DNA of 64,000 nucleotides from Helcococcus kunzii ATCC 51366. GTDB lineage: Bacteria; Bacillota; Clostridia; Tissierellales; Peptoniphilaceae. Position numbers and translations under genes: made by a program. Location of the stretch: contig NZ_JH601088.1 of the NCBI RefSeq assembly GCF_000245755.1, forward strand, positions 488,391 through 552,390. Direction: 5' to 3'. The notes under the pieces were generated by a model. That model was not told the DNA's origin. It did no database searches and saw only the letters and a list, made by a program, of their open reading frames with translations. This document shows, piece after piece, positions 15,314 to 57,961 of the stretch (position 1 is its first letter; each line of letters opens with the position of its first letter).

Positions 15314-15567
15314 ACTTGGTTATTTCTTATTATTTAAATTTACCAAGTATTAATTTTGACCAAATTACTTGGTAAATTCATATATTTAAAATTACCAAGT
15401 AGTTTTTTCGATCAATTTACTTGGTTATTTTTAAATCCTCAAATTCCCAAGTAATTTTTTCTCAATATTTGTAAAAAAAATACTTTGTAAAATTAGTATT
15501 TTAAAATAACCAAGTAATTTTAACAAATTTACTACTTGGTAAAATAAATATTTTAAAATAACCAAGT
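15314..15567. repeat. Palindromic array A (ACTTGGT...ACCAAGT, 5 units)
   Basis: Five imperfect palindromes of 34-35 bp, at 15314-15348, 15367-15400, 15419-15452, 15482-15515 and 15534-15567. Each opens with ACTTGGT and closes with ACCAAGT, with single changes in units 3 and 4. The centres are AT-rich and not conserved. Start-to-start pitch is 53, 52, 63 and 52 bp, all close to whole multiples of the 10.5-bp helical turn. The rest of the roughly 1-kb gap 14768-15790 holds no gene that I can see. Confidence 0.85.
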
Positions 15568-15712
15568 AAATTGTTAATGATTTTTTTCTGATATAGATAA
15601 AAGTAGGGATATGGAAGATATTTTTAATATTGTTTAAAGAAGTATTTTACATCGATATTATTTTCATTTTAATAAACTGTTTAACATTAATACTGTAAAA
15701 AAGCTAAATTAA

Positions 15713-15749
15713 AAATAGTGTTAATGAGTTTTAATCATTAACACTATTT
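15713..15749 (-). terminator. Terminator of the minus-strand lipoprotein gene
   Basis: Perfect 15-bp stem AAATAGTGTTAATGA/TCATTAACACTATTT with a 7-nt loop. On the minus strand it is followed by a run of T, and it lies 43 bp past the stop codon of the gene at 15793. Confidence 0.75.
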
Positions 15750-15792
15750 AGTGAAGAATTAAGATATTTTATAAATAATTCTTTAGCTAAAA

Positions 15793-16472
15793 TTATTTAA
15801 TTTTAAACCATAAGCTATCTTTGTAAACAAGATAACCATTATCATCTTTAGGGATTACTAGTCCAACTTTTCCTGTAGTTTCTCCACCTTCATAAACTTT
15901 AGCATGAAGATTATTATCAATAGATAAATAATTATTTGAACGATATTCAGAGAAATCACTCTTAAAGTATTTAAAGTCAGAATCGGATACTAAATAAGGT
16001 CTGTCATCTTCTGGTTCATATTTTACTAATTTATAATCAACATCAAAAATCAATGCTTCTTCATTTTTATCAAATTCATTAAATTGATTAGATTCTAAAG
16101 TTTTTTTCTTACCTTTTTCACCTCGTGTTAAATTTTTTAATTTTAAGTTAAAATCTATTCTATTTCCTAAATATTCTCCAGACAATTCTGCTAATTCATC
16201 GATATTATATGGATTTTTTCTTGTGTTTTTTTATGTTCTTTTTCTGGTGAATCATTGTTATTTACGGTCGAAGTATCATCTGTATTATTTGTTTCCTCGT
16301 TTAATAAATAATTTATTTGATCTTTTAATCCTTCAACTTGTTTTTTAAGTTCTTCATTTTCTGCTTCTAATTTTTTATAATCATTATTATTTTTTATATC
16401 AGCAGAAGCATTATTGTTACATCCTGTAGCTAATAATAAGCATACTAGTATAAGTGCGAATATTTTTTTCAT
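15793..16472 (-). pseudogene. Lipoprotein gene with frameshift at a poly-A tract
   Basis: The 5' part (16472-16191) encodes a signal peptide with lipobox LLATGC (Cys ~18), a coiled coil (~32-60) and a Thr/Asn-rich linker, then runs into a stop. The 3' part (from 16185) is in another frame and encodes ~130 residues ending in a beta-rich segment (VGLVIPKDDNGYLVYKDSLWFKIK). Adding one A in either of two adjacent A-runs joins the frames into one lipoprotein of about 228 residues, through NPYNIDELAELSGEYLG. The runs are 16226-16232 (seven) and 16214-16219 (six), read as T on the plus strand. The pieces have no independent Shine-Dalgarno, so this is one gene. It is broken, mis-sequenced or switched by slippage. 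The function is unknown; the C-terminal part is extracellular. The upstream piece starts with ATG behind GGAGGAATA. Confidence 0.7.
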
Positions 16473-16805
16473 ATTATTCCTCCGAAAAAAATTATAATTT
16501 ATTCTATTTTTTGTTTAATAGATATTGTGATTATATGTAAGTAAAGTAAAATATTATATTCATTAATAATTCTAATCATTTTACTTATTATTAAATTAAT
16601 ATTTATAAAATTCATTAATCCTTTTTTTTACGTTTTATAGGGGATTTATTATTTTTAAGCAAATAATTATAAATGAGCACATTTACAGTATAAACATTAT
16701 TTAATAATAATGTATTAATTTTGAGCTATTAAATTCTTACATAATATGGGATAATAGAAGTGAATAGTAGAATGAAAGTTATTATTGCAATTAGTATTTA
16801 ACACC

Positions 16806-18728
16806 ATGAACATAAGACAAATAAAAATTTTAGAAAAATTAAATAATAGTGATAAAGAAACATATGAAGATTTTGCGTCTATTTTTAATGTTAGTTCAAG
16901 AACTATCAGAAATGATATAAATGATCTTAATGAATTGATGAGAAAACATTCATCAAAAATAATAAGAGATAATGATGGATATCTAAAAATACAAACAGAG
17001 AATGTAAGAGCATTTCAATCTTTTCTAAGAGAAATAAATAGTGATAATTTATTTGATTATTCTATTCCGAGTCATAGAATGGTATATATTTCGCTTTCAT
17101 TATTAATGGCTAATGATTATATTAAAATGGATTCATTTCTTGATAAGTTATTTATTAGTAAAACTACTTTAAATAAGGATTTTGCTAGTGTAAAGAAAAT
17201 ATTTAAGAGATTTAAAGTTGGACTTAAAACAAAACCTGGATATGGGATAAAGGTTGTTGCAAATGAAAAGAGTATAAGGAAAGCAATATATTATTCGATT
17301 CAATTATTAAATGAAGAAACTTTGGTAATGGATTATTCAACAAATACGCCAATTATTAATAAAGAATATAATGAAATTATTGAGAATATTATAAAAGAAA
17401 AGATAAAGAATAAAAATATTAATATGTCTGATCTGGCATTTAATAATTTAGTTTTACATTTAGTCATTACTGTTGTTAGGATTAAAAATAAAAAATATAT
17501 TGAATTGAATATATTAAAAGAAAATGATTTGATACAGTCCATTAGGAAAAATGAACATTTTAAAATATCAAAAGATATAGTTGTAGAAATTGAAAAAGTG
17601 ATGGATATTAATTTCCCAGTAAATGAAATAATATATATTACTAGTCACTTAATGGGGATAAATATATTGAAAGATTTTTATATTGATAATAAGGAAATTG
17701 ATTTTGATATATTAATTGAAAAAGTGATAGGAGGTATTTCACAATTAACTGGATTAGAATTTACAAAAGATGATGATTTATATTATGGCTTACTAATGCA
17801 TTTAAAACCAGCTATTTATAGATATAAAAATAATATTTATTTGAAAAATCCTTTACTTGATTCTATAAAAATAAATTATGCACAATCTTTTGAATTAGCC
17901 GTACAAGCCGCGCAAATTATAAAAAACAATATTGATATTCAATTAAATGAAGATGAGATAGGATATTTGGCCATTCATATTGGTACTAGTCTAGAAAAGA
18001 ATATAAATAATATTTCGATGGAAAAGTTAAGATGTCTAGTGGTATGCGCTACTGGTTTTGGGACATCAAGATTGATGAGATTAAAACTTGAAAGTCTATT
18101 TAATGATAAAATAGAAATTATTGATGTTGTTCAGGTTTATTCAATTTCTAATTATAGTTTATCTTCTTATGATTTCATAGTTTCAAATATTAAAATAGAA
18201 AATAATTTTAATAAAGATATAATTGTGATAAAAAATATTTTAGATAATGATGAGTATAAACGAGTAAGTAGATATATTGAATATAAGACAAACATTCTAA
18301 ATTATATAAGTGAAGAAAATATATATCCATTATTAGATTTTAATAAACCTAAAGAATTATTGAAGTTTATATGTAATGATTTAGTATTAAGGTCACAGGT
18401 TAATAAAGGAATATATGAATCTATAATTGAAAGGGAGAAAATTTCAAGTTCAAGTATAGGAAATTTAATAGCTATTCCTCATCCATTAAATAAAATGTCT
18501 GAAAAAACTTTTTGGACAATTATTACATTAAAAGATGAAATAAGATGGGGCGATAACAATGTTAGATTTGTTATTTTATTAAATGTAGTAAACGAAGATA
18601 AAATGTATCTGGATACAATGTATGAAAATCTTTTGAAATTAATAAATAATAAAACTTATATTGATGAACTGCTAGAAATTAATGATTCAAAAATATTTTA
18701 TAATAGAATAAAAGAAATGTTGGAATAG
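16806..18728 (+). CDS. PRD-containing transcriptional activator with PTS IIB and IIA domains
   Basis: MtlR/LicR-class regulator, 640 residues from the ATG at 16806. An in-frame TTG at 16785 would add seven residues, and neither start has a clear Shine-Dalgarno. Domain order is N-terminal HTH (NVSSRTIRNDINDLN), a second HTH-like region, PRD1 (~180-285, NLVLHLVITVVR and SHLMG) and PRD2 (~300-400, MHLKP and IHIGTS). An EIIB-like domain with VVCATGFGTS (Cys ~413) and an EIIA-like domain with IAIPHPLN (His ~559) complete it. Such proteins are controlled by PTS phosphorylation of the PRD His residues and activate the adjacent PTS operon. Here the target is presumably the PTS genes 100 bp downstream. 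Confidence 0.88.
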   Translation: MNIRQIKILEKLNNSDKETYEDFASIFNVSSRTIRNDINDLNELMRKHSSKIIRDNDGYLKIQTENVRAFQSFLREINSDNLFDYSIPSHRMVYISLSLLMANDYIKMDSFLDKLFISKTTLNKDFASVKKIFKRFKVGLKTKPGYGIKVVANEKSIRKAIYYSIQLLNEETLVMDYSTNTPIINKEYNEIIENIIKEKIKNKNINMSDLAFNNLVLHLVITVVRIKNKKYIELNILKENDLIQSIRKNEHFKISKDIVVEIEKVMDINFPVNEIIYITSHLMGINILKDFYIDNKEIDFDILIEKVIGGISQLTGLEFTKDDDLYYGLLMHLKPAIYRYKNNIYLKNPLLDSIKINYAQSFELAVQAAQIIKNNIDIQLNEDEIGYLAIHIGTSLEKNINNISMEKLRCLVVCATGFGTSRLMRLKLESLFNDKIEIIDVVQVYSISNYSLSSYDFIVSNIKIENNFNKDIIVIKNILDNDEYKRVSRYIEYKTNILNYISEENIYPLLDFNKPKELLKFICNDLVLRSQVNKGIYESIIEREKISSSSIGNLIAIPHPLNKMSEKTFWTIITLKDEIRWGDNNVRFVILLNVVNEDKMYLDTMYENLLKLINNKTYIDELLEINDSKIFYNRIKEMLE

Positions 18729-18731
18729 GAG

Positions 18732-18782
18732 TGTTTACTTCTATTCTTTTTTTTTTTTCAAAAAATATTGAAAAAGTAAACA
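18732..18782. promoter_or_regulatory. Candidate operator upstream of PTS operon
   Basis: Perfect 9-bp inverted arms TGTTTACTT (18732-18740) and AAGTAAACA (18774-18782), 33 bp apart. The right arm lies in the spacer just after a TTGAAA -35 (18768-18773). A TATTAT at 18794-18799 gives a 20-bp spacer, poor enough to require an activator. This fits a binding site for the PRD regulator, though a terminator role for the left arm plus the T-run is an alternative. Confidence 0.4.
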
Positions 18783-18829
18783 TTTAAGTATTTTATTATA
18801 TCTATTACTATATAACTGTGGAGGTGAAG

Positions 18830-19264
18830 ATGATCAAAGAAATTATAAATGAAAATTTAGTGGAAGTAAATATAAATGTTAAAAATAGAGAAGAAGCAAT
18901 AAGAAAAGGTGGTGAATTACTCGAAAAAAATGGATTTATTGAAAAAAGCTATGTTGAGGCTATGATTGAAAATTTGAAAGAAAATGGAGCGTACATTGTT
19001 TTAGCTCCTGGTATAGCTTTTCCACATGCGCGACCAGAATATGGTGCAAAAAAAATAGGATTCAGCATTATCACTTTGGAGAATGCGATAGAATTTGGAA
19101 ATAAAACAAATGACCCAGTTAAATTAGTTGTTTGTATAAGTGCAGTAGATCATGATACTCATTTAGAAGCATTTGCTGAGCTTGTTGATATTATGGCTGA
19201 TGAAGAAAAACTAAATAATATTATGAATGCAAAAAATAAAAATGATATATTAAAAAATTTTTAA
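18830..19264 (+). CDS. PTS EIIA, ascorbate/galactitol-like (UlaC type)
   Basis: Phosphocarrier domain, 144 residues from the ATG at 18830. An upstream in-frame GTG at 18818 is rejected because the Shine-Dalgarno GGAGGTGA would then lie inside the coding region. The phosphorylated His is in GIAFPHARPE (~66). The EIIA-2 fold pattern (VLAPGIAFPHARP and KLVVCISAVDHDTHLEAFAEL) is that of the UlaC group. It passes phosphate from HPr to the EIIB encoded next. Confidence 0.87.
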   Translation: MIKEIINENLVEVNINVKNREEAIRKGGELLEKNGFIEKSYVEAMIENLKENGAYIVLAPGIAFPHARPEYGAKKIGFSIITLENAIEFGNKTNDPVKLVVCISAVDHDTHLEAFAELVDIMADEEKLNNIMNAKNKNDILKNF

Positions 19265-19274
19265 GGAGGTATAA

Positions 19275-19556
19275 ATGTTGAAATTTGTTACTGTTTGTGG
19301 TGCTGGAGTTGGAAGTAGTATGATGTTAAGACTTTATACACAACAAATTTTAGATAGTGAACAAATTGATGGTACAGTAGAAGCATCAGACATTTCTTCT
19401 GTTAGCCCAAATGATTATGATGTAATCATAACAACTTCAGATTTTGCGGAAAGATTAAGAACTAACAATAATCATATTATTAGAATAGATAATATGATGG
19501 ACAAAGAGTTTTTAAAGTCTGAAATTTTACGTGTTAAAAACGAATTAGGAGAATAG
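19275..19556 (+). CDS. PTS EIIB, ascorbate-like (UlaB type)
   Basis: A 93-residue EIIB with the phosphorylated Cys in VCGAGVGSSMMLR (Cys ~8) and the usual NDYDVIITTSDFA segment. AAGGAGG lies just upstream. The stop is two bases before the EIIC start, so the three PTS genes form one transcript. Confidence 0.88.
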   Translation: MLKFVTVCGAGVGSSMMLRLYTQQILDSEQIDGTVEASDISSVSPNDYDVIITTSDFAERLRTNNNHIIRIDNMMDKEFLKSEILRVKNELGE

Positions 19557-19557
19557 A

Positions 19558-20832
19558 ATGAATATTATTTTATATTTGATTAATAATGTGTTTTCACAAG
19601 CGGTATTTATTATTGGCTTTGTGGCACTAATTGGATTAATTCTTCAGAAAAAAGAATTTCATCAAGTAGTTCCTAGTGTTATAAAAACTATGATTGGGTT
19701 TATGCTAATTGATACTGGTGGAAAATCTCTTGGAATGGCTCTTTTACCATTACAACCAATCTTAAGTAAAGTATTTAACTTAAATGTAAATGTTGAATCA
19801 ATTGGTGAAGCTATGGGCGGTGTTTCAGAAATTGGCTTTGAAATGTCATTGATTTTTGCTCTAGGTTTCTTAATAAATATTTTAATTGCAAGATTTACGA
19901 AATGGAAGTTCATACATCTTAGTGCTCATGTTTCATTTTTCTTCTCTGGATTAATTGCAGCCTTATTAAAATATAATACTTCATTGTCCACGTTAGCGAT
20001 AATAATAATTGGAGGAATATTATTGGGAATATATATGACATTTACATGTGCTTATGTATATCCTCTAATGAAAAACATTAAAGGTGGAGAAGGGTTTACT
20101 TTAGCGCATTCGAGTTCTATAGGGCTGTTAATAGGAGCTGGTGTAGGTAAATTAGTAGGAAACAAAGAAAAAGATATGGAAGACTTAAAACTTCCAAAAT
20201 CATTAGGGTTTTTTAGAGAAATGACTATTGCATTAGCATTAGTAATGACTTTTCTATTTTTAATAGCATCCATAGCAGCTGGACCATCTTGGGTGATGGA
20301 AAATGTATCAAATGGTCAGGATATTTTAGTCTTTAGTATAATGAATGGATTGACTTTTGGAGTATGGATAACAGTTATCATTACAGGAGTAAGAATGTTG
20401 CTTGGAGAAATTGTACCTGCGTTCCATGGTATATCCTCAAAATTAATACCAAATTCAATACCTGGTTTGGATATTCCATTATTATTTCCAAATTATCCTA
20501 CAACAGTAATCGTTGGTTTTATTTCAAGTTTAGTTGCGGGATTTGTAGGAGTAGTAATATTAGGTTTGATAAAATATCCAATAGCTGTGTTTCCAGCTCT
20601 AATACCAACATTCTTTACAGGTGCTATAACAGGTATTTTTGGTAATAGTACAGGTGGAAGAAGAGGAGCTATTGTAGCTTCTTTTGTGAATGGTTTAATT
20701 TTAATTTTTGGTCAAGCGTTATTACTACCTATGGTAGGTTCATATGATCAAATTATGAGAATTTTAGCTGAAACTGACTATGCTTTCTATGGACCACTGT
20801 TAGGTTTTATATTAAAAATGATAGGAATATAA
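19558..20832 (+). CDS. PTS EIIC permease, UlaA type
   Basis: A 424-residue membrane transporter with about ten to twelve hydrophobic segments. Conserved UlaA-family blocks include VVPSVIKTMIGFMLIDTGG near the N terminus and FGNSTGGRRGAIVASFVNGL near the C terminus. The family imports L-ascorbate or related sugar acids with phosphorylation. No ascorbate catabolic gene (ulaD, ulaE, ulaF, ulaG) is present next to it, so the substrate here is open. Confidence 0.88.
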   Translation: MNIILYLINNVFSQAVFIIGFVALIGLILQKKEFHQVVPSVIKTMIGFMLIDTGGKSLGMALLPLQPILSKVFNLNVNVESIGEAMGGVSEIGFEMSLIFALGFLINILIARFTKWKFIHLSAHVSFFFSGLIAALLKYNTSLSTLAIIIIGGILLGIYMTFTCAYVYPLMKNIKGGEGFTLAHSSSIGLLIGAGVGKLVGNKEKDMEDLKLPKSLGFFREMTIALALVMTFLFLIASIAAGPSWVMENVSNGQDILVFSIMNGLTFGVWITVIITGVRMLLGEIVPAFHGISSKLIPNSIPGLDIPLLFPNYPTTVIVGFISSLVAGFVGVVILGLIKYPIAVFPALIPTFFTGAITGIFGNSTGGRRGAIVASFVNGLILIFGQALLLPMVGSYDQIMRILAETDYAFYGPLLGFILKMIGI

Positions 20833-20833
20833 T

Positions 20834-21505: not shown

Positions 21506-21510
21506 CTATT

Positions 21511-21543
21511 AGAACTCTATGGTTAAATAGGGTTCTTTTTAGT
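21511..21543 (+). terminator. Terminator of PTS operon
   Basis: AGAACTCTAT/ATAGGGTTCT hairpin followed by five T, 6 bp past the stop codon. Confidence 0.78.
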
Positions 21544-21582
21544 TTATTTTGTAGAAATAAAATTTCAAAGTGGTGCAGAAAG

Positions 21583-21611
21583 TTGAAAACGTAAACCACG
21601 ACATGTATAAT
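21583..21611 (+). promoter_or_regulatory. Promoter of nagZ-like gene
   Basis: TTGAAA (21583-21588), 17-bp spacer, TATAAT (21606-21611) with TG directly before it. The block AAGTTGAAAATAA follows 2 bp after the -10, exactly as at the promoter of the amiE-like gene (25370-25398). The TTGAAAACG around the -35 is shared too. Confidence 0.85.
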
Positions 21612-21633
21612 AAAGTTGAAAATAATATAAAAA

Positions 21634-21702
21634 GGGGGTATTACTTAGTGAAATAGAAAGTGAATTTATGTATTCGATTTGATATTTTACTAAAAAACAT
21701 AT
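21634..21702 (+). promoter_or_regulatory. Leader with SD, hairpin and start codon (nagZ-like)
   Basis: The only SD-like sequence, GGGGG, is at 21634-21638, 65 nt before the ATG. Between them TTAGTGAAATA (21645-21655) can pair with TATTTTACTAA (21683-21693), with further inner pairing (GAAT 21662-21665 with ATTC 21672-21675). Folding would leave 6 nt plus 9 nt between GGGGG and ATG. The leader of the gene at 25491 has the same design with other bases. Confidence 0.5.
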
Positions 21703-25490: not shown

Positions 25491-27614
25491 ATGTTAAAAA
25501 GAACGTTATCACTATTATTAGCTTTTGCTTTAGCTATACAAGCCTTTTTTATTGCTGATGTGAAAGCGGAAGAAACTGATTTTAAAAATCCTGAGTTTAT
25601 TGAATTACTTGATGAACTAATCTCATCAGAAAATAATTATGGATTATCAGGTGCACAGTTAGCTGTATATAAAGACGGAAATTTGATAAAAAATAGTGCT
25701 TATGGTTATATCAATAACTATAAAAACAAATTTGATGAAAATGGAGATGTTATTTTTGGTGACTTTGATATTCTTCCTAAAAATGAAAGAGTAAAAGTAA
25801 CAGAAAATACTCTATTCGACCTTGCAAGTAATACAAAAATGTATGCAACAGTCTATGCAATGCAAAAATTAGCTTCTGAAGGAAAAGTTTCTTTAGATAC
25901 TAAGATTTCAGAAATATTTCCTGAATTTTTAGAATTTGCTAATGAAAATGGCTGGAAAGATAAAATTGATGTAAGAATGGTTTTAAGTCATAGAGCAGGT
26001 TTTGCTCCAGATCCTCAATACCATAACGAAAAATTTGATGCGGTTGATCAAATAAAAAACGGGAAAAATGATTTATATTCTCAAGATAGAGAAAAGACAT
26101 TTGAAATGGTAATGAAGACTCCGCTTAATACAGAACCAGACACTGATTGGGCATATTCAGATGCTGATATGATGTTAGCTGGTTTTATAGTTGAAAAATT
26201 GAGCGGAATGCCTTTAGAGGAATATGTTTCAAAAAATTTCTATAAACCATTGGGATTAGACAGGATAACATTTAATCCTCAAGAAGCTGGATTTAAAGTA
26301 AATGAATTATCTGCTTCAGAATTAAACGGAAATACAAGAGACGGAAAAAACTTCTTTAATAATGTGAGAACTACCATTGTAGAAGGTGAAGTACATGATG
26401 AAAAGGCCTATTATTCAATGGGTGGAGTTTCCGGTCATGCAGGATTATTTGGATCTGCGCAACAAATAGCATATTTAGCACAAGCTATGATTTATGATGG
26501 CGAATTAAATGGTGTTAAATTATTCGATAAGGAAACAATTGATAAATTTACAGAAGTTTCTCCATGGCATACTCAAGCAAATGGAGGATGGAGAAGAAAA
26601 AGCGAATCAGGTGGTGCAGCTGCATGGTATTCTGAATTTGCTCCTGCAGGTACAATCGGTCATACTGGTTGGACAGGTACAAATACAATGATTGATAAAG
26701 AAAATAAACTGACACTATCATTAAATACAAACTCAAGAAACACACCATTAATGCACCCTGGAACTAATGACTTCTATAACTATAATAGTAATATTAGTTC
26801 ATATGGTCTAGTTTCAGAACTTATCTATAGAGCATTAGGATTAGCTGATGGGAAAGATGTAGATGAAGTGCTTATAAAAATCATTGAAGCAGACTATGTT
26901 GAAGATGTATCAAAAGAACTACCATCAAAGAGAAATACAATAAGATCTTTAATGGATGTACTAAAAGATAGAGCTAAAGGAAATAAAGTTTTAACAAATT
27001 ACCTTGAATATGATAAAATTCAAAAACTAATTTCAGATTTAGAGCTTACAAAATATGAAGACTTAAAGAGAATCTCACTAATTGAAAAACCTGTAGAAAA
27101 ACATGGCTGGAAACAAATTGGAAACAAATGGACATATTATGACCATGGTAAACAAGCTAAGTCAGAATGGAAATGGATCAATAAAACTTGGGAATATTTC
27201 AACTCCAAAGGTGAATCAATTGACCAAATCTATAAAGAAAATGGAATGCACTGGCTTTCTATCGCTGGACCAAATACAAGATACTACAAAGGTTGGTGGT
27301 TAAATCCTCAAAATGGTTCAAAATACTATTTCAGACAAAGCTCAGGTACAATGGTGAAAGGAAAACAATTCATCGATGGTAATTGGAGATACTTCAGAAA
27401 CTCCGGAACAATGGCAACAGGATGGCAAAAACTTCCATTAGGTTGGATGTACTTTAGACCTGCGACAGGTACACAAGCCTACGGTTGGCAATATATAGAT
27501 GGAGTATGGAGATATTTAAGACCATCAACAGGTACAAGAGTATCAGGTAAACAATGGATTGATGGAAGATGGTACAATTTTACATGGGACGGTAAGTTAA
27601 TAGGAAAAAGATAA
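25491..27614 (+). CDS. Wall-bound serine hydrolase, AmiE/beta-lactamase fold
   Basis: Secreted 707-residue protein with signal peptide (1-26), a class C beta-lactamase-like domain (~30-450) and C-terminal wall-binding repeats (~537-707). Active-site motifs are SxxK as ASNTKMY (Ser ~112, Lys ~115), a YxN-like YSD (~222) and HTG (~390) in place of KTG. In B. subtilis the muropeptide-rescue amidase AmiE (YbbE) is a protein of this fold encoded beside nagZ, murR, murQ and murP, as here. Removal of the peptide from MurNAc-peptides is therefore the best guess. A D-Ala-D-Ala carboxypeptidase or esterase is possible. It is co-regulated with the GH3 enzyme through a shared promoter and leader design. 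Confidence 0.72.
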
Positions 27615-27656: not shown

Positions 27657-27789
27657 GATGAAATGGAATGAAATCTTTTTAAGTTATTATATAAAAAATT
27701 TCTATTCTAGTAAAATAGGGATAATAATTGTTTTGTGAAAATAAACTATTGTAGAATGATTAATTCAAGCTATACTTTTTTAAAAAATT

Positions 27790-28085
27790 ATGGTCCGTAA
27801 ATACCCTAGGGGGGTATTTAAAAGAGTATAAATTAAAAAATTATGGTCTTGATATACCCCTAGGGGGTATAATACGGACCATGTTTTTCAAATATTCCTT
27901 TTATATTAACATATAAAACTATAGATATATGGTCTTAAATATACTGGGGTTGGGTATTTTGGGATCATAGTCCTTAAGATTTTCTAGAATTTTATGGTCC
28001 TAAATATACCTAGGAGGGGTATCTAGAGACCATAAAAAATTGAGTATGGTCTAAAAAATACGGTAGGGGGGTATTTACGGAGCAT
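27790..28085. repeat. Palindromic array B (ATGGTC...GACCAT, 5 units of 40 bp)
   Basis: Five imperfect palindromes, each exactly 40 bp: 27790-27829, 27843-27882, 27929-27968, 27994-28033 and 28046-28085. The outer arms are ATGGTC/GACCAT and the inner arms ATACC/GGTAT around a CCTAGG-like GC-rich centre. Pitch is 53, 86, 65 and 52 bp. Unit 2 is the most symmetrical; units 1, 3 and 5 have one to three changes in the right arm. The array is in the 0.9-kb gap between the amiE-like gene and murR, and no open frame uses it. Confidence 0.85.
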
Positions 28086-28440
28086 AACATACGTCATAAA
28101 ATACAATATTATATCATAAAAATTCAAAAATCGTAAAAACGCACCATAATAAAAACGCATTTTCGTAAAAACTCACCATTATAAAATCCCATAACAATAC
28201 GTTCCAACAACTCTCATATCAAAAATTCTACAATTTTGCATTTCTACATATTTATATAACTATTACAACATCTCCAAACCAAAAAAATATACATTCCTCC
28301 GCTCTATAGTTTTCTATTCCTGCACATCTACATTCCAACATCTCCACACATCCTAAATCCATTCAATCAATAATCCCAGACTCTCCACCCACATATCTCC
28401 AAATCCCACTACATAACATTCCCACATCTCAATACTAAAC
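28086..28440. other. Gene-free stretch with C-rich, G-poor plus strand
   Basis: About 350 bp in which the plus strand is made mostly of A, T and C, with scattered CATCTCC/CCACA-like words and very few G. No ORF, RNA gene or clear repeat is visible. The opposite bias (G-rich, C-poor plus strand) is seen at about 45890-46020 and 46480-46560. Confidence 0.5.
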
Positions 28441-45699: not shown

Positions 45700-45862
45700 G
45701 GCGCTCGCCTGCATCAGTGTGCATTCAAAAAGAAATTACTTCGGTAAATTGACGAAAAGCTGCGGAACTCGATTGCTACGCAATCTTCGGACATCCTCGC
45801 TTTTCTAATTTACTCTAGTAATTTCTTTTTTCATTTGCGCACAATGATGCAATGCTCGCGCC
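45700..45862. repeat. Large imperfect palindrome after potD copy 1
   Basis: About 60-bp arms (45700-45760 and 45799-45862) sharing GGCGC...GCGCC ends, TGCATCA...TGATGCA, AGAAATTACT...AGTAATTTCT and GTAAATT...AATTTAC. The centre GATTGC-TAC-GCAATC is itself a palindrome. It is richer in G and C than its surroundings. It begins 8 bp after the potD stop and could act as a terminator-like hairpin, or be a small non-autonomous element. Confidence 0.7.
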
Positions 45863-46025: not shown

Positions 46026-46324
46026 ACGATGATAAATGCAAAAAACGAAGAAATCCTCGTTTAAGAAATGGGTTGTGGACGATGATAAATGTAGAAATTA
46101 AAAAAATCCTCGTTCAAACGCCAACATTTTTACGATGATAAATGCAAAAAAAGAAGAAATCCTCGTCTGAAAAGTGAGAAATATACAATGATAAACACAA
46201 AAAAAGAAAAAATCATCGTCTGAAAGGCGGAAAATGTGCGATGATAAATGTAAAAATCGAAAAAGTCCTCGTAAAATAAATGAAAATAGTACGATGATAA
46301 ATGCGAGAAAAGAAAAATCATCGT
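46026..46324. repeat. Palindromic array C (ACGATGAT...ATCNTCGT, 6 units)
   Basis: Six units start at 46026, 46079, 46132, 46185, 46238 and 46291, an exact 53-bp pitch. Each is a 35-bp imperfect palindrome (the last 34), ACGATGAT-AAATGC... closing with AATCCTCGT or AATCATCGT, followed by an 18-bp spacer. Spacers differ: for example TTAAGAAATGGGTTGTGG, TCAAACGCCAACATTTTT and CTGAAAAGTGAGAAATAT. Minus-strand frames through it are low-complexity and are not genes. Confidence 0.92.
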
Positions 46325-46448
46325 CCAAATGCCAATATTATAACAAGGATGTTACAATTATAAGATGATAATTCTTTTGGCATTCTATCTATGCTGCGTA
46401 AAGTAGTTGGGGTGTGATTCTTTGAATTTCTCTTCATTCCTTCCATTT

Positions 46449-46640: not shown

Positions 46641-46673
46641 CAGCAGGATATATAATTAAATTTATAAGAATCT

Positions 46674-47079
46674 ACGGAGCAAAATAGACTTTATTGAATT
46701 AGCACTGTTTAAATTAACAGGAATCTACGTAGCAAAATAGCTTTTATAGAATTAGCACTGTTTAAATTAACAGGAATCTACGGAGCAAAATAAGGTTTAT
46801 TAAATTAGCACCGTTTAAAAGGACGAAATTCTACAGAGCAAAATAAACTTTATTAGATTAGCACCGTTTAAAAGGACGAAATTCTACAGAGCAAAATAAA
46901 CTTTATTAGATTAGCACCGTTTAAAAGGACGAAATTCTACAGAGCAAAATAAACTTTATTAGATTAACACCGTTTAAAAGGACGAAATTATACAGAGCAA
47001 AATAAACTTTATTAGATTAACACCGTTTAAATGGTGATTTTTAAACAGAGCAAATTTAGATTTCTTAATTTTGCTCTGT
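46674..47079. repeat. Palindromic array D (ACAGAGC...GCACCGT, 8 units)
   Basis: Eight 35-bp units start at 46674, 46727, 46780, 46833, 46886, 46939, 46992 and 47045, an exact 53-bp pitch, with 18-bp spacers. The left arm is AC(A/G)GAGC (ACGTAGC in unit 2), the right arm GCAC(C/T)GT. Units 3 to 7 are nearly identical, so recent tandem duplication is likely. The last unit is a perfect hairpin (AACAGAGCAAA/TTTGCTCTGTT). Spacers are partly shared (TTAAATTAACAGGAATCT twice, TTAAAAGGACGAAATTCT three times). Confidence 0.93.
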
Positions 47080-47358
47080 TCTCTTATTTATAAACATCAT
47101 AGTAATTATTTAATGTGAGTTTCTAAGTAGTTAATTAAACTTTATTCAATAGTTGGTTGCTTTGCAATCTTCCCAGTTAATATTTATATTATCTATCACT
47201 AAAATAGTTGTTCCAACCATTAACTTTCAATCAACTTTCAAAGTCTATAGATGTCAGTCGAAAAAAGGTCCATGATAATAATCAAAAAATGGTCCAGTTA
47301 AAAAATAATTTATGAAAATTTCGGTTGTATAAAGGCAAGGAGTAAGGCCTTATTACAT

Positions 47359-49185: not shown

Positions 49186-49202
49186 TTATATATTTAAAAT
49201 GC

Positions 49203-49244: not shown

Positions 49245-49245
49245 C

Positions 49246-51325: not shown

Positions 51326-52488
51326 GATGGTTATTGGGAATAAGTTTTGGCGAGCTTATGTTAAAAGGAAAAAATAGAAAAAAATTTATAAATGATTCAA
51401 TTAAACAAGTATTAAAAGCACTTGAAAATTTTGAGATAAAAGACCATTTTTTAGATAATGAAAAATTATTTGTTGAGGTTAATAAAGAAGAGTTTGATGA
51501 GATTGTAGAAAAGGCGAGAATGGTTTTTGGGCTTTCATATGTGTATCCTTGTCTACAAGTTGAGAAAGATTTAGAGTCCATTGAAAAAGGTATAATTGAA
51601 TATATTAATTTCAAGGATATTAAGGATAATGTAACTTTTAAGGCATATGGAACCAGAGCGGATAAGTCATTTGAAATGAATTCTATGGAAATTGCTAGAG
51701 AAGTAGGTGCTTTTGTTTTAAGAAACTTTAGCAATTTCAAAGTTGACATAAAAAATCCTGAGAAAAAAGTCTATGTTGATATTAGGCAAAAAGCTTATAT
51801 TTATATGGATAAAATCCCTACAATTGGTGGTTTGCCAATGGGGACAGGTGGAAAAGCCATTTTATTACTTTCAGGTGGAATAGATTCACCAGTTGCAGGA
51901 TTTGAAATGGCTAGAAGAGGTGTAGAAATAGCTGCAGTACATTTCCATTCATATCCATTCACAAGTGAAAGAGCGCAAGATAAGGTGAAGAGATTAGCTG
52001 AAAAAATGTCAATATATTTGGGAACAATTAAACTATTCCAAATAAATTTATTGCCTATTTACACAGCTATAAATAAAAATTGTAAAGCGAGATTTACAAC
52101 AATTCTTTCAAGAAGATTTATGATGAGAATCTCTGAAATTTTAGCGGAGAAATACAGATATGATGGTTTTGTCACAGGTGAAGCCTTAGGACAAGTTGCT
52201 AGTCAAACCATTCAGTCAATATCTGTGGTAAATGATGCAACAAGATTACCTATTTTTAGACCACTAATCAATATGGATAAATCAGAAATTATTGAAAAAG
52301 CTAAATGGATTGAAACATATGATATTTCAATAGAACCATATGATGATTGTTGTTCATTTTTTGCACCAGATAGACCAGCAACAAAACCAAGACTGTATGA
52401 CATTTTAAGAGAAGAAGAAAAATTAAATGTCGAAGCGTTGATTGAAGAGGCTTTAGAATCACTTGAAATAATTGAAGTAAGTATATAA
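51322..52488 (+). CDS. thiI: tRNA 4-thiouridine synthetase ThiI
   Basis: A 388-residue enzyme that adenylates tRNA U8 for thiolation. It has an N-terminal ferredoxin-like/THUMP region (~1-165, FGELMLKGKNRKKF) and a PP-loop ATPase domain with LLSGGIDSPVAGFEMARRG (~181-199). CCSFFAPDRPATKP lies near the C terminus. The rhodanese domain of the E. coli enzyme is absent, as in other Firmicutes. It is coupled to the desulfurase gene. Confidence 0.95.
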   Translation: MRWLLGISFGELMLKGKNRKKFINDSIKQVLKALENFEIKDHFLDNEKLFVEVNKEEFDEIVEKARMVFGLSYVYPCLQVEKDLESIEKGIIEYINFKDIKDNVTFKAYGTRADKSFEMNSMEIAREVGAFVLRNFSNFKVDIKNPEKKVYVDIRQKAYIYMDKIPTIGGLPMGTGGKAILLLSGGIDSPVAGFEMARRGVEIAAVHFHSYPFTSERAQDKVKRLAEKMSIYLGTIKLFQINLLPIYTAINKNCKARFTTILSRRFMMRISEILAEKYRYDGFVTGEALGQVASQTIQSISVVNDATRLPIFRPLINMDKSEIIEKAKWIETYDISIEPYDDCCSFFAPDRPATKPRLYDILREEEKLNVEALIEEALESLEIIEVSI

Positions 52489-52596
52489 TAAAATAAAAAA
52501 GGAAATTCCAATGTAAAATTAGAATAGATATATCAAATTATATATCTTTAAATCAAAATGGTAAGAAATCACACAATTAAATAACTAGGAGACATT

Positions 52597-54336
52597 ATGA
52601 AAAATTTAAAATACATTTTTTGGTATTTTAAGAAATACAAGAAAAGATATATTATCGGTATTACTGCCTTGTTACTTGTGTATGTAGTTATTCCTATTCC
52701 AAATAAATTGATTGGGGAGTTTGTAGATAGAGTAAGTAATAAAACTCTAGATATGAATACTTTGATTTTCTATTCAATAATTTTGATAGGATCTATTGCA
52801 TTGCAGTATGTTCTACAATATATATGGCATTACTTTATTTTTGGACATTCATTTCAATCGTCAAGGGATAGTAGAAGAAAATTAGTGGCAAAGATTTTAC
52901 AGCAAACACCACCATTTTTCTACAAAAATTCCACTGGTTCCCTTATGAATAAGGCAACACAAGATGTAGGGACAATTGAGATGCTTACTGGATATGGTAT
53001 ATTAGCTTTTTCGGATGCTACCATTTATCCGATTTCAATCATCTTAATAATGGGATTTACTATTTCATGGCCAATGACACTAATTTCAATAATATTATTG
53101 CCATTATTAATTATTATTACTAAAATATTAGGACAAAAACTTCATGTAGGATATCTAAAATTACAAAAGTCATATGAGATTATGAATGAATCTGTTATGG
53201 AAAATATCTCATCTGTGAGAGTGATTAAAGGATTTTCTACTCAAGAAGTTTCATCAAAAAGATTTGAAAAAGCTGCAGATGATTTATATGAAGATCAATT
53301 TAAACAGGATAAATTGCATTCATTATTTATTCCATCTGGTAGATTAATACCTTCATTGACATTTATTATCGCCTTGATTTTTGGACAACATTTGATGAGT
53401 ACTGGAAATCTAACTTTAGGACAGTTGACATCATTTTTCCTATACTTAAACATGTTGGTTTGGCCAATGTTTGCTTTTGGTGATTTGGTAAATGTTATAC
53501 AAGAATCAAGTGCATCTTTAGTTAGATTGCAAGAAATTTATGATTACAAGGAAGATTTGGTGGATATTGAAAATCCAGAAGAATATCAAGCTAAAGACTC
53601 CATTACATTCCAAAACTTCAGTTTTAAGTATCCAGGAGATGAGAAATATTCCTTAAAAGATATAAATCTGAAAATTAATAAAGGTGAAACATTGGGCATT
53701 GTTGGTAAAATTGGCTCTGGAAAGACAACTTTGTTAAAACAACTTTTAAGATTTTATGATATTGCAGAAGGAGAAATACTATTTGATGGTAAGCCTGCTG
53801 AAATGTATTCCATTAAGAGTATTAGAGACAAAACGGGATATGTACCACAGCAACATCTTCTATTTTCAAAATCTGTATATGACAATATAGCCTTTGGTAA
53901 GGAGAATGCAACTGAAGAAGAAGTAATGGATGCCATTGAGTTTGCAGACTTTACAAAAGATTTAGATACATTGCCAAATAGCTTGGAAACAATGATCGGT
54001 GAAAAAGGTATATCTATTTCTGGTGGTCAAAAGCAAAGAGTTTCTATCTCTAGAGCGATAATAAAAGACCCGGAAATATTAATACTTGATGATTCTCTTT
54101 CAGCGGTTGACTCAATTACAGAAAAGAGAATCATAGAAAACATTGTTACAAATAGACAAGGAAAGACAACTATAATTGTAGCTCACAGACTTTCTGGACT
54201 GAAACATGCGGAAAATATTATTGTACTTGATAGAGGAGAAATTGTTGAATCAGGTACACATGAAGAGCTAATCAAAAACAGGGGATGGTATTATAGTCAA
54301 TATGAATCTCAAAAGTCAGGAGGTTCAGATGAATAA
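52597..54336 (+). CDS. Heterodimeric ABC exporter, degenerate half (BmrC/YheI-like)
   Basis: A 579-residue half-transporter with a six-helix membrane domain and an ATPase domain. The ATPase has Walker A GKIGSGKTT (~369), signature ISGGQKQRVSISRAI (~473) and Walker B ILILDDSLSAVD (~495). The catalytic Glu after Walker B is Asp, the mark of the degenerate site in heterodimeric exporters such as BmrCD. H-loop VAHRLSG is present. GGAGA lies before the ATG. An AGATATA/TATATCT inverted repeat (52526-52547) upstream may be an operator. Likely a multidrug exporter. Confidence 0.87.
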   Translation: MKNLKYIFWYFKKYKKRYIIGITALLLVYVVIPIPNKLIGEFVDRVSNKTLDMNTLIFYSIILIGSIALQYVLQYIWHYFIFGHSFQSSRDSRRKLVAKILQQTPPFFYKNSTGSLMNKATQDVGTIEMLTGYGILAFSDATIYPISIILIMGFTISWPMTLISIILLPLLIIITKILGQKLHVGYLKLQKSYEIMNESVMENISSVRVIKGFSTQEVSSKRFEKAADDLYEDQFKQDKLHSLFIPSGRLIPSLTFIIALIFGQHLMSTGNLTLGQLTSFFLYLNMLVWPMFAFGDLVNVIQESSASLVRLQEIYDYKEDLVDIENPEEYQAKDSITFQNFSFKYPGDEKYSLKDINLKINKGETLGIVGKIGSGKTTLLKQLLRFYDIAEGEILFDGKPAEMYSIKSIRDKTGYVPQQHLLFSKSVYDNIAFGKENATEEEVMDAIEFADFTKDLDTLPNSLETMIGEKGISISGGQKQRVSISRAIIKDPEILILDDSLSAVDSITEKRIIENIVTNRQGKTTIIVAHRLSGLKHAENIIVLDRGEIVESGTHEELIKNRGWYYSQYESQKSGGSDE

Positions 54337-56110
54337 AAAAGATGAAATACAAGGTAGCTTTATAAAAGAAAACTACAAGCAAAAAGCAAGATTTAGAAAT
54401 AAAAAATTATTTCAATATTTAATGCAGTTAAAGGGCTTATTTGCAATTAGTATGGGCTTGACAATTTTTGCTACCCTTGCAGAACTTATTGGTCCATATA
54501 TTTTAGGGCAAATACTTGATGGTCAGTTAGTTGAAGGTGTAGGCGCAAAAGATTTAGGACAATTCTACAAATTAGTTGGAATGTATTTTGGTTCGATACT
54601 AATTACAACTTTAGCAGCATATTTTGGTGCGCTGGCATATTCAAAATTAGCAAATAGCCTATCACAAATTATTAGAAAAGACACATTTAGACATGTGCTT
54701 TCTTTACCGGTGCAATTTTTTGATAAATACGCAATTGGTAAAATAGTAAATAGGATAACAAATGATACAAAAGATATCAGAATGTTATTTAATCTAGTTT
54801 TTACACAAATTTTAACAACCGTTGTAAAAACTATTGGCCTAGTAATTGCGTTATTTATTATTGATTGGAAACTGGGATTAATGACACTAATTGTAGCTCC
54901 GTTAACATATATAATATTTAAGGATTATTTCAAAAAATCTACAGAATATCAACGTAAGCTTAAATATTATAGATCAGAATTAAATGGTAATTTAGCTGAA
55001 AATATTACTACAATGGAAGTTATCCAAGCATTTAATAAAGAAGATGAAATTTATGATGAATTCTCTGAAATTAATAATAAGATAAATGAACAAGGTTGGA
55101 ACTTAGCCACTCTTTGGGCTTATTCAGGATTTAATGCAACTAACACATTGGGAAATCTTACAGTTTCAATAATTGTTATCTTATTCGGATATTATTTCCT
55201 ACAAGGACAACCATTCATCTCTGTTGGTAGTTTATTTATTTTCATAGACTACAATAGAAGAATTTATCAAAATGTAAACATGCTAATGGATCAAGCAGGT
55301 AATTTAGAAGGATCCAAATCCGCTGCTGATCAACTATTTGAGTTACTAAGAGTTGAACCATTTAAGGAAGGTACACAAAACATTGAAAATATGCAAGGAA
55401 ATATTCAATTTGAAGATGTTTCATTCGCATACAACAATGATGAGTATGTAATTCACGACTTAAATTTAGAAATACCTAAAGGTAGCTCTGCAGCGTTTGT
55501 AGGGCACACAGGTTCTGGAAAATCAACAGTTATGAACTTAATCTATAAATTTTACAATATCAATAAGGGAAAAATTTTAATTGATGGCAAAGATATCAAT
55601 GAATTGGATATGGTTAAGATTCGTAAAAATATGGCGATAGTATTTCAAAATCCATATATTTTTGAAGGAACAATCTTCGAAAATATTGCCTTATTTGATG
55701 ATTCCATTTCTAAAAATGAAGCAGAATTGGCGCTTATTTCCGTAGGAGGAGAAAACATCCTTATGAGAGAAGGCGGCATTGATGCGGTTGTAAGAGAATC
55801 TGGTGCAGGCTATTCTTCAGGAGAAAGGCAAATTATTTCTTTCGCAAGAGCCATGGTTAGAGATCCTAAAATCTTAGTTCTTGATGAGGCTACAGCAAAT
55901 GTTGACTCAGAAACAGAAGAAAGAATCCAATTCGGTTTAGAAAGACTTAAAAAAGGACGTACAACCTTAATCATTGCACATAGATTATCAACAATCAAAA
56001 ATGTAGATAAAATCTACTTGCTAGAAAAAGGTCACTTGATCGAATCAGGCTCACATGATGAATTGTTAAGACAAAATGGAAAATATGCAGAAATGTATAG
56101 AAATAATTAG
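54329..56110 (+). CDS. Heterodimeric ABC exporter, canonical half (BmrD/YheH-like)
   Basis: A 593-residue half-transporter from the ATG at 54329. AGGAGG at 54318-54323 excludes the in-frame ATG at 54302. Walker A is GHTGSGKST (~391), signature YSSGERQIISFARAM (~495) and Walker B LVLDEATANVDSETEE with catalytic Glu. H-loop IAHRLSTIK is present. The SSGERQ wording is usual for YheH-type subunits. It overlaps its partner by 8 bp; together they form one canonical and one degenerate ATP site. Confidence 0.88.
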   Translation: MNKKDEIQGSFIKENYKQKARFRNKKLFQYLMQLKGLFAISMGLTIFATLAELIGPYILGQILDGQLVEGVGAKDLGQFYKLVGMYFGSILITTLAAYFGALAYSKLANSLSQIIRKDTFRHVLSLPVQFFDKYAIGKIVNRITNDTKDIRMLFNLVFTQILTTVVKTIGLVIALFIIDWKLGLMTLIVAPLTYIIFKDYFKKSTEYQRKLKYYRSELNGNLAENITTMEVIQAFNKEDEIYDEFSEINNKINEQGWNLATLWAYSGFNATNTLGNLTVSIIVILFGYYFLQGQPFISVGSLFIFIDYNRRIYQNVNMLMDQAGNLEGSKSAADQLFELLRVEPFKEGTQNIENMQGNIQFEDVSFAYNNDEYVIHDLNLEIPKGSSAAFVGHTGSGKSTVMNLIYKFYNINKGKILIDGKDINELDMVKIRKNMAIVFQNPYIFEGTIFENIALFDDSISKNEAELALISVGGENILMREGGIDAVVRESGAGYSSGERQIISFARAMVRDPKILVLDEATANVDSETEERIQFGLERLKKGRTTLIIAHRLSTIKNVDKIYLLEKGHLIESGSHDELLRQNGKYAEMYRNN

Positions 56111-56112
56111 AG

Positions 56113-56152
56113 AAAAAATCACAGAGGCAATTAGCCATCTGTGATTTTTTTT
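56113..56152 (+). terminator. Terminator of exporter operon
   Basis: AAAATCACAGA/TCTGTGATTTT stem followed by eight T, 3 bp after the stop codon. Confidence 0.9.
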
Positions 56153-56256
56153 AGATTGTATAGGACATAATTTATAATATAAATGTAAGTTATGTTCTGA
56201 ACCTTCAGGAATGAATTGGGTATAATAAAATAAAATACAACATTTTAGGAGGAAAA

Positions 56257-56601
56257 ATGGAAAAAGATATTATTGATGAATATATTCAAAATCAAGATGA
56301 AAATGTTCAAGAAATATTAGTTAATGTAAGAAAAATAATAGAAACTGCACTTCCAGAATTTACTATTTCACTTGCATATGGAATGCCAACTTATAAATCA
56401 AAGAGAAATTTGATACATTTTGCTGCAAACAAAAATCATTTAGGCGTTTATCCAACTCCAAAAGTAATAGAAGCTTTTTCTGATGAACTTAAAGAATACA
56501 AAACTTCAAAAGGTGCAGTGCAATTTCCATATAATAAGCCTATTCCATATGAGTTAATAGGGAAAATGGCGAAATATAGTTATGATTTGTATACCAGGTA
56601 A
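56257..56601 (+). CDS. DUF1801 (YdhG-like) protein
   Basis: A 114-residue cytoplasmic protein with AGGAGG before the ATG. It has an N-terminal helical part (VQEILVNVRKIIETALPEF), the DUF1801 signature ISLAYGMPTYK, then LIHFAANKNHLGVYPTPKVIE and KGAVQFPYNKPIPYELIGKM. Members are small, of unknown or possibly metal-related function. TATAAT at 56221-56226 is a likely -10. Confidence 0.85.
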   Translation: MEKDIIDEYIQNQDENVQEILVNVRKIIETALPEFTISLAYGMPTYKSKRNLIHFAANKNHLGVYPTPKVIEAFSDELKEYKTSKGAVQFPYNKPIPYELIGKMAKYSYDLYTR

Positions 56602-56722
56602 ATAAAAATCAAGATTATAAAATAAATATTATAAAATAAATATTTTCAATATGTTAAAATCTAATTAGAAATCGATTTCAATTTGAAATTGTATTTAATT
56701 CTACAAAAGGAGGAGCAATAAC

Positions 56723-57337
56723 ATGAAAAAAAGTTTTAAATATATAGTTTCAATTTTAGCGATTGTATTTATCACCTTATCAGCAATATTTTTTATAACC
56801 AAAAATAAAATGAACGCTGTAAATTTATCATATAAAGGTATAGAAGGAAAAAAATTTGTTTACTCCATCAAAGATAATAATTTGAATTGTAAGTTAGATA
56901 AAGATACTGGATTAAAAAATTTAGATAAGGTAAAACTTGAATGTTCTGATCCTACTTTTAATTTTATAAAATTTGATAAAGAGTATACCATAACTGGATT
57001 ATATAGTGATAACTTAGATACAAATAAGAAGTTTATTGCTGTAGAAAATCTTATTTTCCCTTTTGAAAATTATCTATATAAAAAAACGGATGAAGGTATT
57101 GAAGTAATTAAAATTGCATCAGAAGATAACAAATATTTTACAGATACATATTTCAATTTATTTTTTGATGATGAAAACTTAGTAAAATTAGACGATTTTA
57201 GTAAACTGAAAATAACCAGTAAAGATAAACATATTACTCCAGGAGCTAAAGTGAGTAATATTGAAAGAAAATATATTGATGAAATCATTCAAAAATATAT
57301 AGATTCAGGTTATACTCTAAAATTTGAAAAAGAATAA
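56723..57337 (+). CDS. Membrane-anchored extracytoplasmic protein, unknown
   Basis: A 204-residue protein with AAAAGGAGGAG upstream. It has an N-terminal signal anchor (~5-28) and a Lys/Asp-rich extracellular domain with two cysteines (NLNCKLDK and KLECSD). No family is recognised. The lipoprotein gene starts 21 bp after its stop, so the two are probably co-transcribed surface proteins. Confidence 0.6.
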   Translation: MKKSFKYIVSILAIVFITLSAIFFITKNKMNAVNLSYKGIEGKKFVYSIKDNNLNCKLDKDTGLKNLDKVKLECSDPTFNFIKFDKEYTITGLYSDNLDTNKKFIAVENLIFPFENYLYKKTDEGIEVIKIASEDNKYFTDTYFNLFFDDENLVKLDDFSKLKITSKDKHITPGAKVSNIERKYIDEIIQKYIDSGYTLKFEKE

Positions 57338-57358
57338 TAAAAAATTTAAGGAGTAATT

Positions 57359-57721
57359 TTGAAAACAAAAAAATTTATTATAATATCAGCGCTGTTAATA
57401 TTTATTTTAACAGCGTGCTCAACAAAGAAAATTGATTTATCTGGCATAGATATTAATTCATCAAGTATTACATTGAATGGAGAAAAATATGATAAATCAG
57501 ATAAACTTATTGAAGTTATAAAAAATAAAACAAAATTTGTAAGGAAATCATCCAATGATACACCTACAAATATATCTAAATACGACAAAATCAGTATTAG
57601 TAAAAAAGATAATGACACTGTATTGTATTTATTTGAAGATACAAATGAATATTATATAGAACAACCTTATGCAGGTGTGTGGAAAATAGAAAAAGAAGAC
57701 TATGAAAATTTAGTAAAATAG
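57359..57721 (+). CDS. Small lipoprotein, unknown
   Basis: A 120-residue protein starting at TTG with AAGGAG 5 nt upstream. The lipobox IFILTAC puts the lipidated Cys at ~20. The mature part is short, charged and beta-rich (TVLYLFEDTNEYYIEQPYAG, then VWKIEKEDYENLVK). No family is recognised. Confidence 0.65.
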   Translation: MKTKKFIIISALLIFILTACSTKKIDLSGIDINSSSITLNGEKYDKSDKLIEVIKNKTKFVRKSSNDTPTNISKYDKISISKKDNDTVLYLFEDTNEYYIEQPYAGVWKIEKEDYENLVK

Positions 57722-57731
57722 AAATGGAGGC

Positions 57732-57775
57732 TGTTAAAAATGACTGGAAAGTTATTTTTAAGCAGTTTCTTTTTT
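57732..57775 (+). terminator. Terminator after lipoprotein gene
   Basis: CTGTTAAAAAT/ATTTTTAAGCAG stem with one bulge, followed by a T-rich run. Confidence 0.6.
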
Positions 57776-57874
57776 ATTTTAATATTTTTCCGTGAGGCAT
57801 TTAAGTATATGATAATTTTGAGATAGGAGGTATAGTGAAATTTGAGATTAAAATTTTTGAAAATTGAGGGAAAA

Positions 57875-57961
57875 TGGTACTAAAATTTATATTTTCAAAT
57901 ATAGTACCAAATTTCAATAAAAAAATTGGTACTAAAAATTAAAATTTAAGATTTAGTACCA
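57875..57961. repeat. Palindromic array E (TGGTACT...AGTACCA, 2 units)
   Basis: Two 35-bp palindromes at 57875-57909 and 57927-57961, pitch 52 bp, with perfect 7-bp arms TGGTACT/AGTACCA and different AT-rich centres. The 17-bp spacer is AT-rich. They are in the 340-bp gap between convergent genes. The only other items in the gap are the terminator and an AGGAGG-GTG with a 10-codon frame at 57836, which I do not call. Confidence 0.8.

What the first reader, a model, noticed from the sequence alone, without database searches (positions are those of the whole stretch)
15314..57961. A class of geometry-conserved palindrome arrays at five places
Besides arrays C and D, array A (15314-15567: 34-35-bp units, pitch 53/52/63/52), array B (27790-28085: 40-bp units, pitch 53/86/65/52) and array E (57875-57961: two 35-bp units, pitch 52) have the same plan with other arm sequences (ACTTGGT, ATGGTC, TGGTACT). 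All are intergenic. The 52-53 bp register recurs in every array. This suggests one mechanism acting on many sequences: a family of binding sites each with its own protein, an array of RNA hairpins, or a replication or slippage process that makes and keeps palindromes.
Basis: partly seen in the sequence, partly recalled or inferred. Interest (0 to 1): 0.95.

Follow-up and report, generated by a model that had tools for sequence, protein, structure and literature searches.

The report
Helix-phased palindrome arrays, many address families
This Helcococcus genome carries dozens of non-coding arrays of short inverted DNA sites, in about a dozen sequence families that repeat every 52-53 bases (about five turns of the double helix), and they likely act as docking strips for DNA-binding proteins that have not yet been found.

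Summary
In 844 kb of this Helcococcus genome (window plus 39 stretches) exact half-site triads at pitch 51-54 number 445, against a mean of 0.8 (maximum 3) in 20 Markov controls. Arms are not locus-specific: about 12 arm families each recur at several loci. Half-site steps are rigid within a family and sum to 52-53 bp; most exceptions are about one helical turn longer or shorter. The two arms of a unit mutate independently (9 matched double changes, 6.8 expected), and in six of eight families the interiors of a unit match less than chance. Arrays avoid genes, favour gene 3' ends, and about half of the facing genes have a terminator before the array. Whole composites recur at unrelated sites. 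The same plan with other arms occurs in a second genus of the family and, with tighter palindromes, in Paenibacillus, but in only 1 of 24 sampled relatives. RNA hairpins and palindrome-making replication fit poorly. Best reading: dispersed duplex-DNA arrays bound by sequence-specific proteins, one specificity per arm family. No such protein was found. Closest known kinds, E. coli BIMEs and staphylococcal STAR elements, were measured here and differ in pitch.

The parts
15047..15087 (.). single unit of family G (TTACATGTGTA ... TACACATGTAA) upstream of array A
   Evidence: palindrome scan and unit catalogue
15313..15568 (.). array A, family TACTTGGT, five units, pitch 53/52/63/52
27789..28086 (.). 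array B, family TATGGTC(C) with a CCCC(TA)GGGG-like core, pitch 53/86/65/52
46026..46325 (.). array C, family ACGATGAT/ATCCTCGT, six units (one degenerate at 46238), pitch 53
46671..47031 (.). array D, family TACGGAGC/GCACTGTT, near-identical 53-bp units
   Evidence: tandem repeat finder 6.8 copies
47044..47080 (.). terminal near-perfect palindrome AACAGAGCAAA ... TTTGCTCTGTT of array D
57875..57962 (.). array E, family TGGTACTA, two units, pitch 52

Best explanation
The arrays are dispersed intergenic DNA elements built of oppositely oriented half-sites whose pairs repeat every 52-53 bp, and they are likely bound as duplex DNA by sequence-specific proteins, predicted to be one specificity per arm family. 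Shown: the arm families, the pitch, the rigid steps, the arms being better kept than the rest, the lack of arm compensation, the intergenic and 3'-biased placement, recurrence of whole composites at unrelated sites, and the mirror symmetry of array A. Inferred: a dimer or larger assembly sits on each pair; a pitch of about five turns of B-DNA would put successive pairs on one face so that neighbours can touch; the assembly most likely has a structural role at gene ends (holding a DNA segment or separating neighbouring transcription units); whole arrays are copied to new sites by an unknown route. The proteins are unidentified and untested.
For: 445 triads at pitch 51-54 against 0-3 in controls. 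Rigid inner and outer steps in families A, B, C, E, F, G, H, I and K. Helical phase: 183 of 211 same-family steps are 51-54; 15 distinct family/step exceptions are enriched for whole turns (P = 0.005; missing-unit sums 105, 106, 151 and the masked 142 left out); 21 of 22 listed Paenibacillus sp. YN15 steps under 200 bp are within 2 bp of a whole number of 10.5-bp turns. In genus g6, 20 steps of 54-55 and 6 of 64-65, none other. Arms agree in 553 of 592 positions between related arrays, other positions in 992 of 1305. No arm compensation: 9 alike against 6.8 expected in 275 units, 2 of 63 in 17 degenerate units. Convergent gaps 15 of 45 with arrays against 10 of 89 array-free gaps (P = 0.004), divergent 3 of 45 against 19 of 89 (P = 0.046). 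Terminator-like hairpin between gene and array at 24 of 52 gene ends, wrong-strand control 9 of 52. Two species of genus g6 share the arm AGTGGTG.
Against: No binding protein found; 778 sampled ORFs show no large family of paralogous regulators. Clear phased arrays were seen in only 1 of 24 sampled relatives (G008; several relatives were sampled by less than 10 kb). Some steps do not fit whole turns (50, 100, 171 in Helcococcus; 184 in YN15), and G008 also has arrays of pitch 45. The best-fitting turn for the first set of exceptions was 10.75 bp. Arm conservation is not significant for the C and G pairs, and three of the eight pairs share one array. Arm conservation could also come from selection for copying.
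Confidence: 0.55

Rival explanations
1. Selfish non-autonomous mobile elements (MITE- or foldback-like): the phased half-sites are recognition sites of a mobilising enzyme, and the arrays have no host role.
For: K-H composites of about 610 bp recur at four loci with homology ending near the outermost half-sites and no match in the outer flanks. Array A is mirror-symmetric, like two inverted ends. In genus g6 the loci of two species match only inside arrays in the 60 rows shown.
Against: The genome is poor in the transposases searched: 0 Y1_Tnp, 0 DDE_Tnp_1, 1 rve, 3 tyrosine recombinases; other families were not searched. No gene flanked by two arrays of one family was seen in the catalogue of the sample. 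No target duplication was recognised by eye.
Confidence: 0.25
2. RNA hairpins: arrays are transcribed as chains of stem-loops (3' untranslated regions, small RNAs or sponges).
For: Inverted arms; STAR elements, a related kind, are reported as transcribed (PMC5294841, passages).
Against: No compensation between arms; interiors of one unit match less than those of different units in six of eight families; conserved T/C mismatch in many C units; terminator-like hairpins before 24 of 52 arrays.
Confidence: 0.07
3. Replication slippage or template switching makes and keeps palindromes in place.
For: Near-identical tandem units in array D and parts of F.
Against: The same arms recur at unrelated loci; array plans such as A 53,53,62,52,52 and B 53,86,65,52 repeat between loci; arms do not become perfectly complementary.
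Confidence: 0.04
4. CRISPR-like or other guide-RNA arrays with short spacers.
For: Short conserved repeats separated by variable stretches of even length.
Against: Repeats alternate in orientation; the variable stretches keep a family consensus; no CRISPR family reached the Rfam threshold in the window. cas genes were not searched.
Confidence: 0.02

Closest known systems
REP / BIME elements of Escherichia coli (REPs in PMC3733652, passages read; REPINs in PMC3116915, search listing only)
   Same: Dispersed, intergenic, palindromic units in alternating orientation, singly or in short arrays.
   Different: Two MG1655 loci in 89 kb repeat a REP pair every 98-99 bp (steps 22 and 76-77) instead of 52-53; known REPs come with a Y1 transposase, absent here; one genome here has about 12 arm families on one lattice.
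STAR elements of Staphylococcus aureus and S. lugdunensis (PMC3532100, abstract and passages)
   Same: Conserved short motif, variable stretches, arrays of tens of bases pitch, intergenic, several loci, function and dispersal unknown; the motif in fetched contigs is a palindrome (GTTGGGG ... CCCCAAC).
   Different: Pitch 57 or 59 bp in six contigs that look like one locus; one motif family described; described as direct repeats.
Miniature inverted-repeat transposable elements (general; recalled)
   Same: Short non-coding elements that recur whole at unrelated sites, with symmetric ends.
   Different: No parent transposon and no target duplication recognised; the body consists of phased binding-like units.

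Membership tests
REP/BIME | REP-associated Y1 transposase in the genome | tested here: not met
   PF01797: 0 matches in G000; the search rings in 5 of 14 controls
REP/BIME | 20-40 bp palindromes, intergenic, many copies | tested here: met
   308 units in 844 kb; 0 of 63 arrays inside ORFs
REP/BIME | BIME pair period as in E. coli (98-99 bp) | tested here: not met
   52-53 here against 98-99 at two MG1655 loci
REP/BIME | GTAG or CGTC tag at the foot of the stem | not tested
   feature named in PMC3733652; not scored across families
STAR | motif T(G/A/T)TGTTG(G/T)GGCCC(C/A) | not tested
   none of the arm families is this motif; the genome was not searched for it
STAR | array period | tested here: not met
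   57 or 59 in STAR contigs, 52-53 here
MITE | terminal inverted repeats | tested here: met
   array A is mirror-symmetric about its 62-63 bp gap; other families not scored for this
MITE | target-site duplication | tested here: inconclusive
   none recognised by eye in the flanks of 11 A arrays
MITE | related autonomous transposon | tested here: inconclusive
   none seen in the 40% sample; four enzyme families searched
CRISPR | direct repeats with unique spacers | tested here: not met
   repeats alternate in orientation

The most novel reading that the evidence does not exclude
A widespread, undescribed DNA-architecture system of Bacillota: one nucleoprotein scaffold with a fixed five-turn repeat and interchangeable 7-9-bp address codes, so that all arrays bearing one code can be gathered or kept apart by one protein, giving a bacterium about a dozen independent chromosome-folding or insulation addresses.
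Probability: 0.2. Interest if true: 0.92.

Novelty: new variant of a known kind. Interest (0 to 1): 0.72.

Why it matters
Dispersed bacterial palindromes are usually described family by family. Here many unrelated arm sequences obey one DNA-helix geometry in one genome, and the geometry recurs in another genus and in Paenibacillus. That makes an open question (what intergenic repeats such as STAR and BIME are for) directly testable: one pull-down with one array could name the protein.

Tried and rejected
Rfam on the window: tRNAs only. Y1_Tnp, rve, tyrosine recombinases and DDE_Tnp_1 in the own genome. Paralogue clustering of 778 sampled ORFs for a family of regulators: the large groups are ABC transporter ATPases and permeases (group identity partly recalled from sequence). 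Pfam of ten array-adjacent genes: HAD hydrolases, ROK, TraX-like, choline-binding, glyoxalase, KdpD, ABC permease, one without a match; no shared DNA-binding protein. Arrays C-D against plasmids, A against plasmids and phages, the second-genus array against plasmids: six plasmid records match A over 19-23%; the Aerococcus record that I read holds no ACTTGGT half-site and is taken as chance, the other five were not read. Pattern for A in viral contigs: none. One protein in viral contigs: none. Orientation of arrays by replichore: family C seemed to flip, F does not, so it was dropped. My first phase statistics left out some steps (50, 85, 105, 106, 151 in Helcococcus, 184 in YN15); one search replaces them. 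I first read the A pair 236197/1421956 as a copy at an unrelated site; both arrays lie behind paralogous gene ends, so the K-H composites are now the main case. Literature: nine searches listed no paper on such arrays in Helcococcus, Peptoniphilaceae or Paenibacillus; most subscription papers are not held.
Full report
WHERE. The window is G000:C1:488391-552390; the genome has 2.096 Mb in two contigs and the window is 28.5% G+C. It is a Helcococcus by inference: its RuvB is 83% identical to that of H. sueciensis and 82% to that of H. massiliensis, and G001, given as the same genus, has a first contig of the same length (127,622) as the H. sueciensis record. The species is not told.

OBSERVATION. 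I took 39 further stretches of 20 kb: 17 picked around hits of the ACTTGGT or ACGATGAT families, 22 not picked by hits. In 844 kb, triads of an exact 7-mer, its reverse complement and the 7-mer again number 143 at pitch 52 and 277 at 53, 8 at 51, 17 at 54, and none at 50 or 55-58. Twenty order-2 Markov sets of equal size give 0-3 at 51-54 against 445 observed; the 22 unpicked stretches alone give 254. Those 22 stretches hold 24 array loci, and 17 of 22 have at least one; this extrapolates to roughly 110 loci in the genome (estimate). The whole sample has 53 loci with two or more units.

FAMILIES. Arms are not locus-specific. Eleven arm words, with two mismatches or fewer per unit, give 308 units against 22 in the reversed-arm control: A TACTTGGT 61, G TACATGTG 45, C ACGATGAT 41, F TCAGGAAA 32, H CAACACAT 31, E TGGTACTA 31, B TATGGTCC 20, I ACCCTAGC 14, D TACGGAGC 13, L TGGTGCTA 12, J TATACTGT 8. 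J is weak: its control count is also 8. E and L words overlap, so some units are counted under both. A twelfth family, K TTTATACAT, lies beside H arrays, with steps 30-32 and 20-21. In A, C, E, F, G, H and I the main inner and outer steps sum to 52-53, in B to 52-54.

ARCHITECTURE. Same-family arrays repeat the same plan at different loci: A 53,53,62,52,52 and close variants; B 53,86,65,52; F followed by G about 81 bp on; K followed by H. The two halves of a unit are often of different types. C pairs ACGATGAT with ACGAGGAT, and where the halves differ the direction is constant in 8 of the 9 C arrays listed. A has GGTTATTT-type and GGTAAAAT-type halves whose order tends to reverse across the 62-bp gap, so the array is mirror-symmetric. 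Interiors of one unit match each other less than interiors of different units in six of eight families (z -1.9 to -4.2; E -0.1, H +0.4).

HELIX PHASE. 183 of 211 same-family steps are 51-54. The other 28 are 42, 50, 62-65 (ten), 82, 85, 86, 95, 100, 105-106 (five), 115 (two), 142 (across masked bases), 151 (two) and 171. Taking 15 distinct family/step values, without sums that reflect a missing unit (105, 106, 151) and without 142, the whole-turn component has P = 0.005; 50, 100 and 171 do not fit. P. phytorum has 51, 62 and 113-114, P. paeoniae multiples of about 51. Paenibacillus units are tighter (about 20-24 bp), so common descent of the two systems is not shown. G008 also has arrays of pitch 43, 45 and 64; 45 is not a whole number of turns.

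DISTRIBUTION. Of 24 relatives sampled by stretches, only G008 shows clear phased arrays; G003 has one array of pitch about 107 and G001 one weak cluster. Samples of several relatives were under 10 kb. A scan of 80 RuvB loci from named genomes gave clusters of five or more triads in eight loci, all Paenibacillus or Brevibacillus; one of them is CRISPR-like and others look coding.

CONSTRAINT. In eight pairs of related arrays, arm positions agree in 553 of 592 and other positions in 992 of 1305. Five pairs are significant below 0.003, one at 0.027; C and G are not, and three pairs share one array. In genus g6 the arm AGTGGTG is shared by two species (2 of 61 genomes in the family), while in the 60 BLAST rows shown the fetched loci match only inside arrays. 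The Helcococcus arms were not found in the relatives searched: ACTTGGT arrays in 1 of 41 genomes, the own one, and ACGATGAT in 1 of 4 of the genus.

NOT RNA STEMS. In 275 units of eight families (33 units of D, J and L left out) 104 left and 133 right arm cells differ from consensus; 9 are changed alike on both sides, 6.8 expected. In 17 further degenerate units found by register, 2 positions are changed alike among 63 changes. Of 45 gaps with arrays 15 are convergent and 3 divergent, against 10 and 19 of 89 array-free gaps of 300 bp or more (P = 0.004 and 0.046). Of 52 gene ends facing an array within 700 bp, 24 have a terminator-like hairpin before the array (9 of 52 on the wrong strand) and 3 only after it. 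So many arrays are probably outside the upstream transcript.

DISPERSAL. K-H composites of about 610 bp occur at four loci; BLAST homology covers the composite and ends near the outermost half-sites, in either orientation, with no match in the outer flanks. The A arrays at 236197 and 1421956 agree at 286 of 307 positions in opposite orientation. Both lie behind paralogous choline-binding gene ends that are about 83-87% alike, the bases between terminator and array are dissimilar, and the far flank is unrelated, so this pair is compatible with copying of the array or with duplication of the region. Other paralogous gene ends of this group carry arrays B or C instead. The genome is poor in the four transposase or recombinase families searched.

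MECHANISM. I commit to protein-bound duplex arrays. A half-site of 7-9 bp followed by A/T, repeated in alternating orientation about every 26 bp (2.5 turns), gives pairs on a five-turn lattice. Sequence-specific recognition explains arm constancy across loci; rigid steps and whole-turn exceptions fit contacts along one face of the helix. The role at gene ends and the cognate proteins are inferred. The strongest rival is that the half-sites serve only the copying of the element.

COMPARISON. E. coli BIMEs at two loci in 89 kb of MG1655 repeat a REP pair every 98-99 bp, and STAR arrays step by 57 or 59 bp in six contigs that look like one locus. Both are related in kind; no paper that I saw describes a dozen arm families on one lattice.

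Noticed in passing
window about 45710-45850; L010; L063: A stretch with a long imperfect inverted repeat near the C array of the window recurs near the C array of L010 and the H array of L063 (144 bp, 88% identical); possibly another dispersed element.
   Followed up: no
window about 47250-47310; L010 about 10690-10750; L067: A repeat with GGTCCA motifs recurs at three loci near arrays (49-65 bp, 82-93% identical).
   Followed up: no
window 25491-27614; L067; L018; L065: Paralogous choline-binding gene ends are followed by different array families (A, B or C).
   Followed up: partly
L043 2103-2760 (G003, same genus): A congener has an array of pitch about 107 (about twice 53) with GCCCCATC arms.
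   Followed up: partly
window 2985-5927 and L019 8617-12022: Two copies of a gene cluster that looks like a Tad-type pilus (recalled from sequence; paralogy).
   Followed up: no
L218-L223: STAR arrays carry a second, locus-variable palindrome that differs between units yet stays self-complementary, unlike the arrays here.
   Followed up: no
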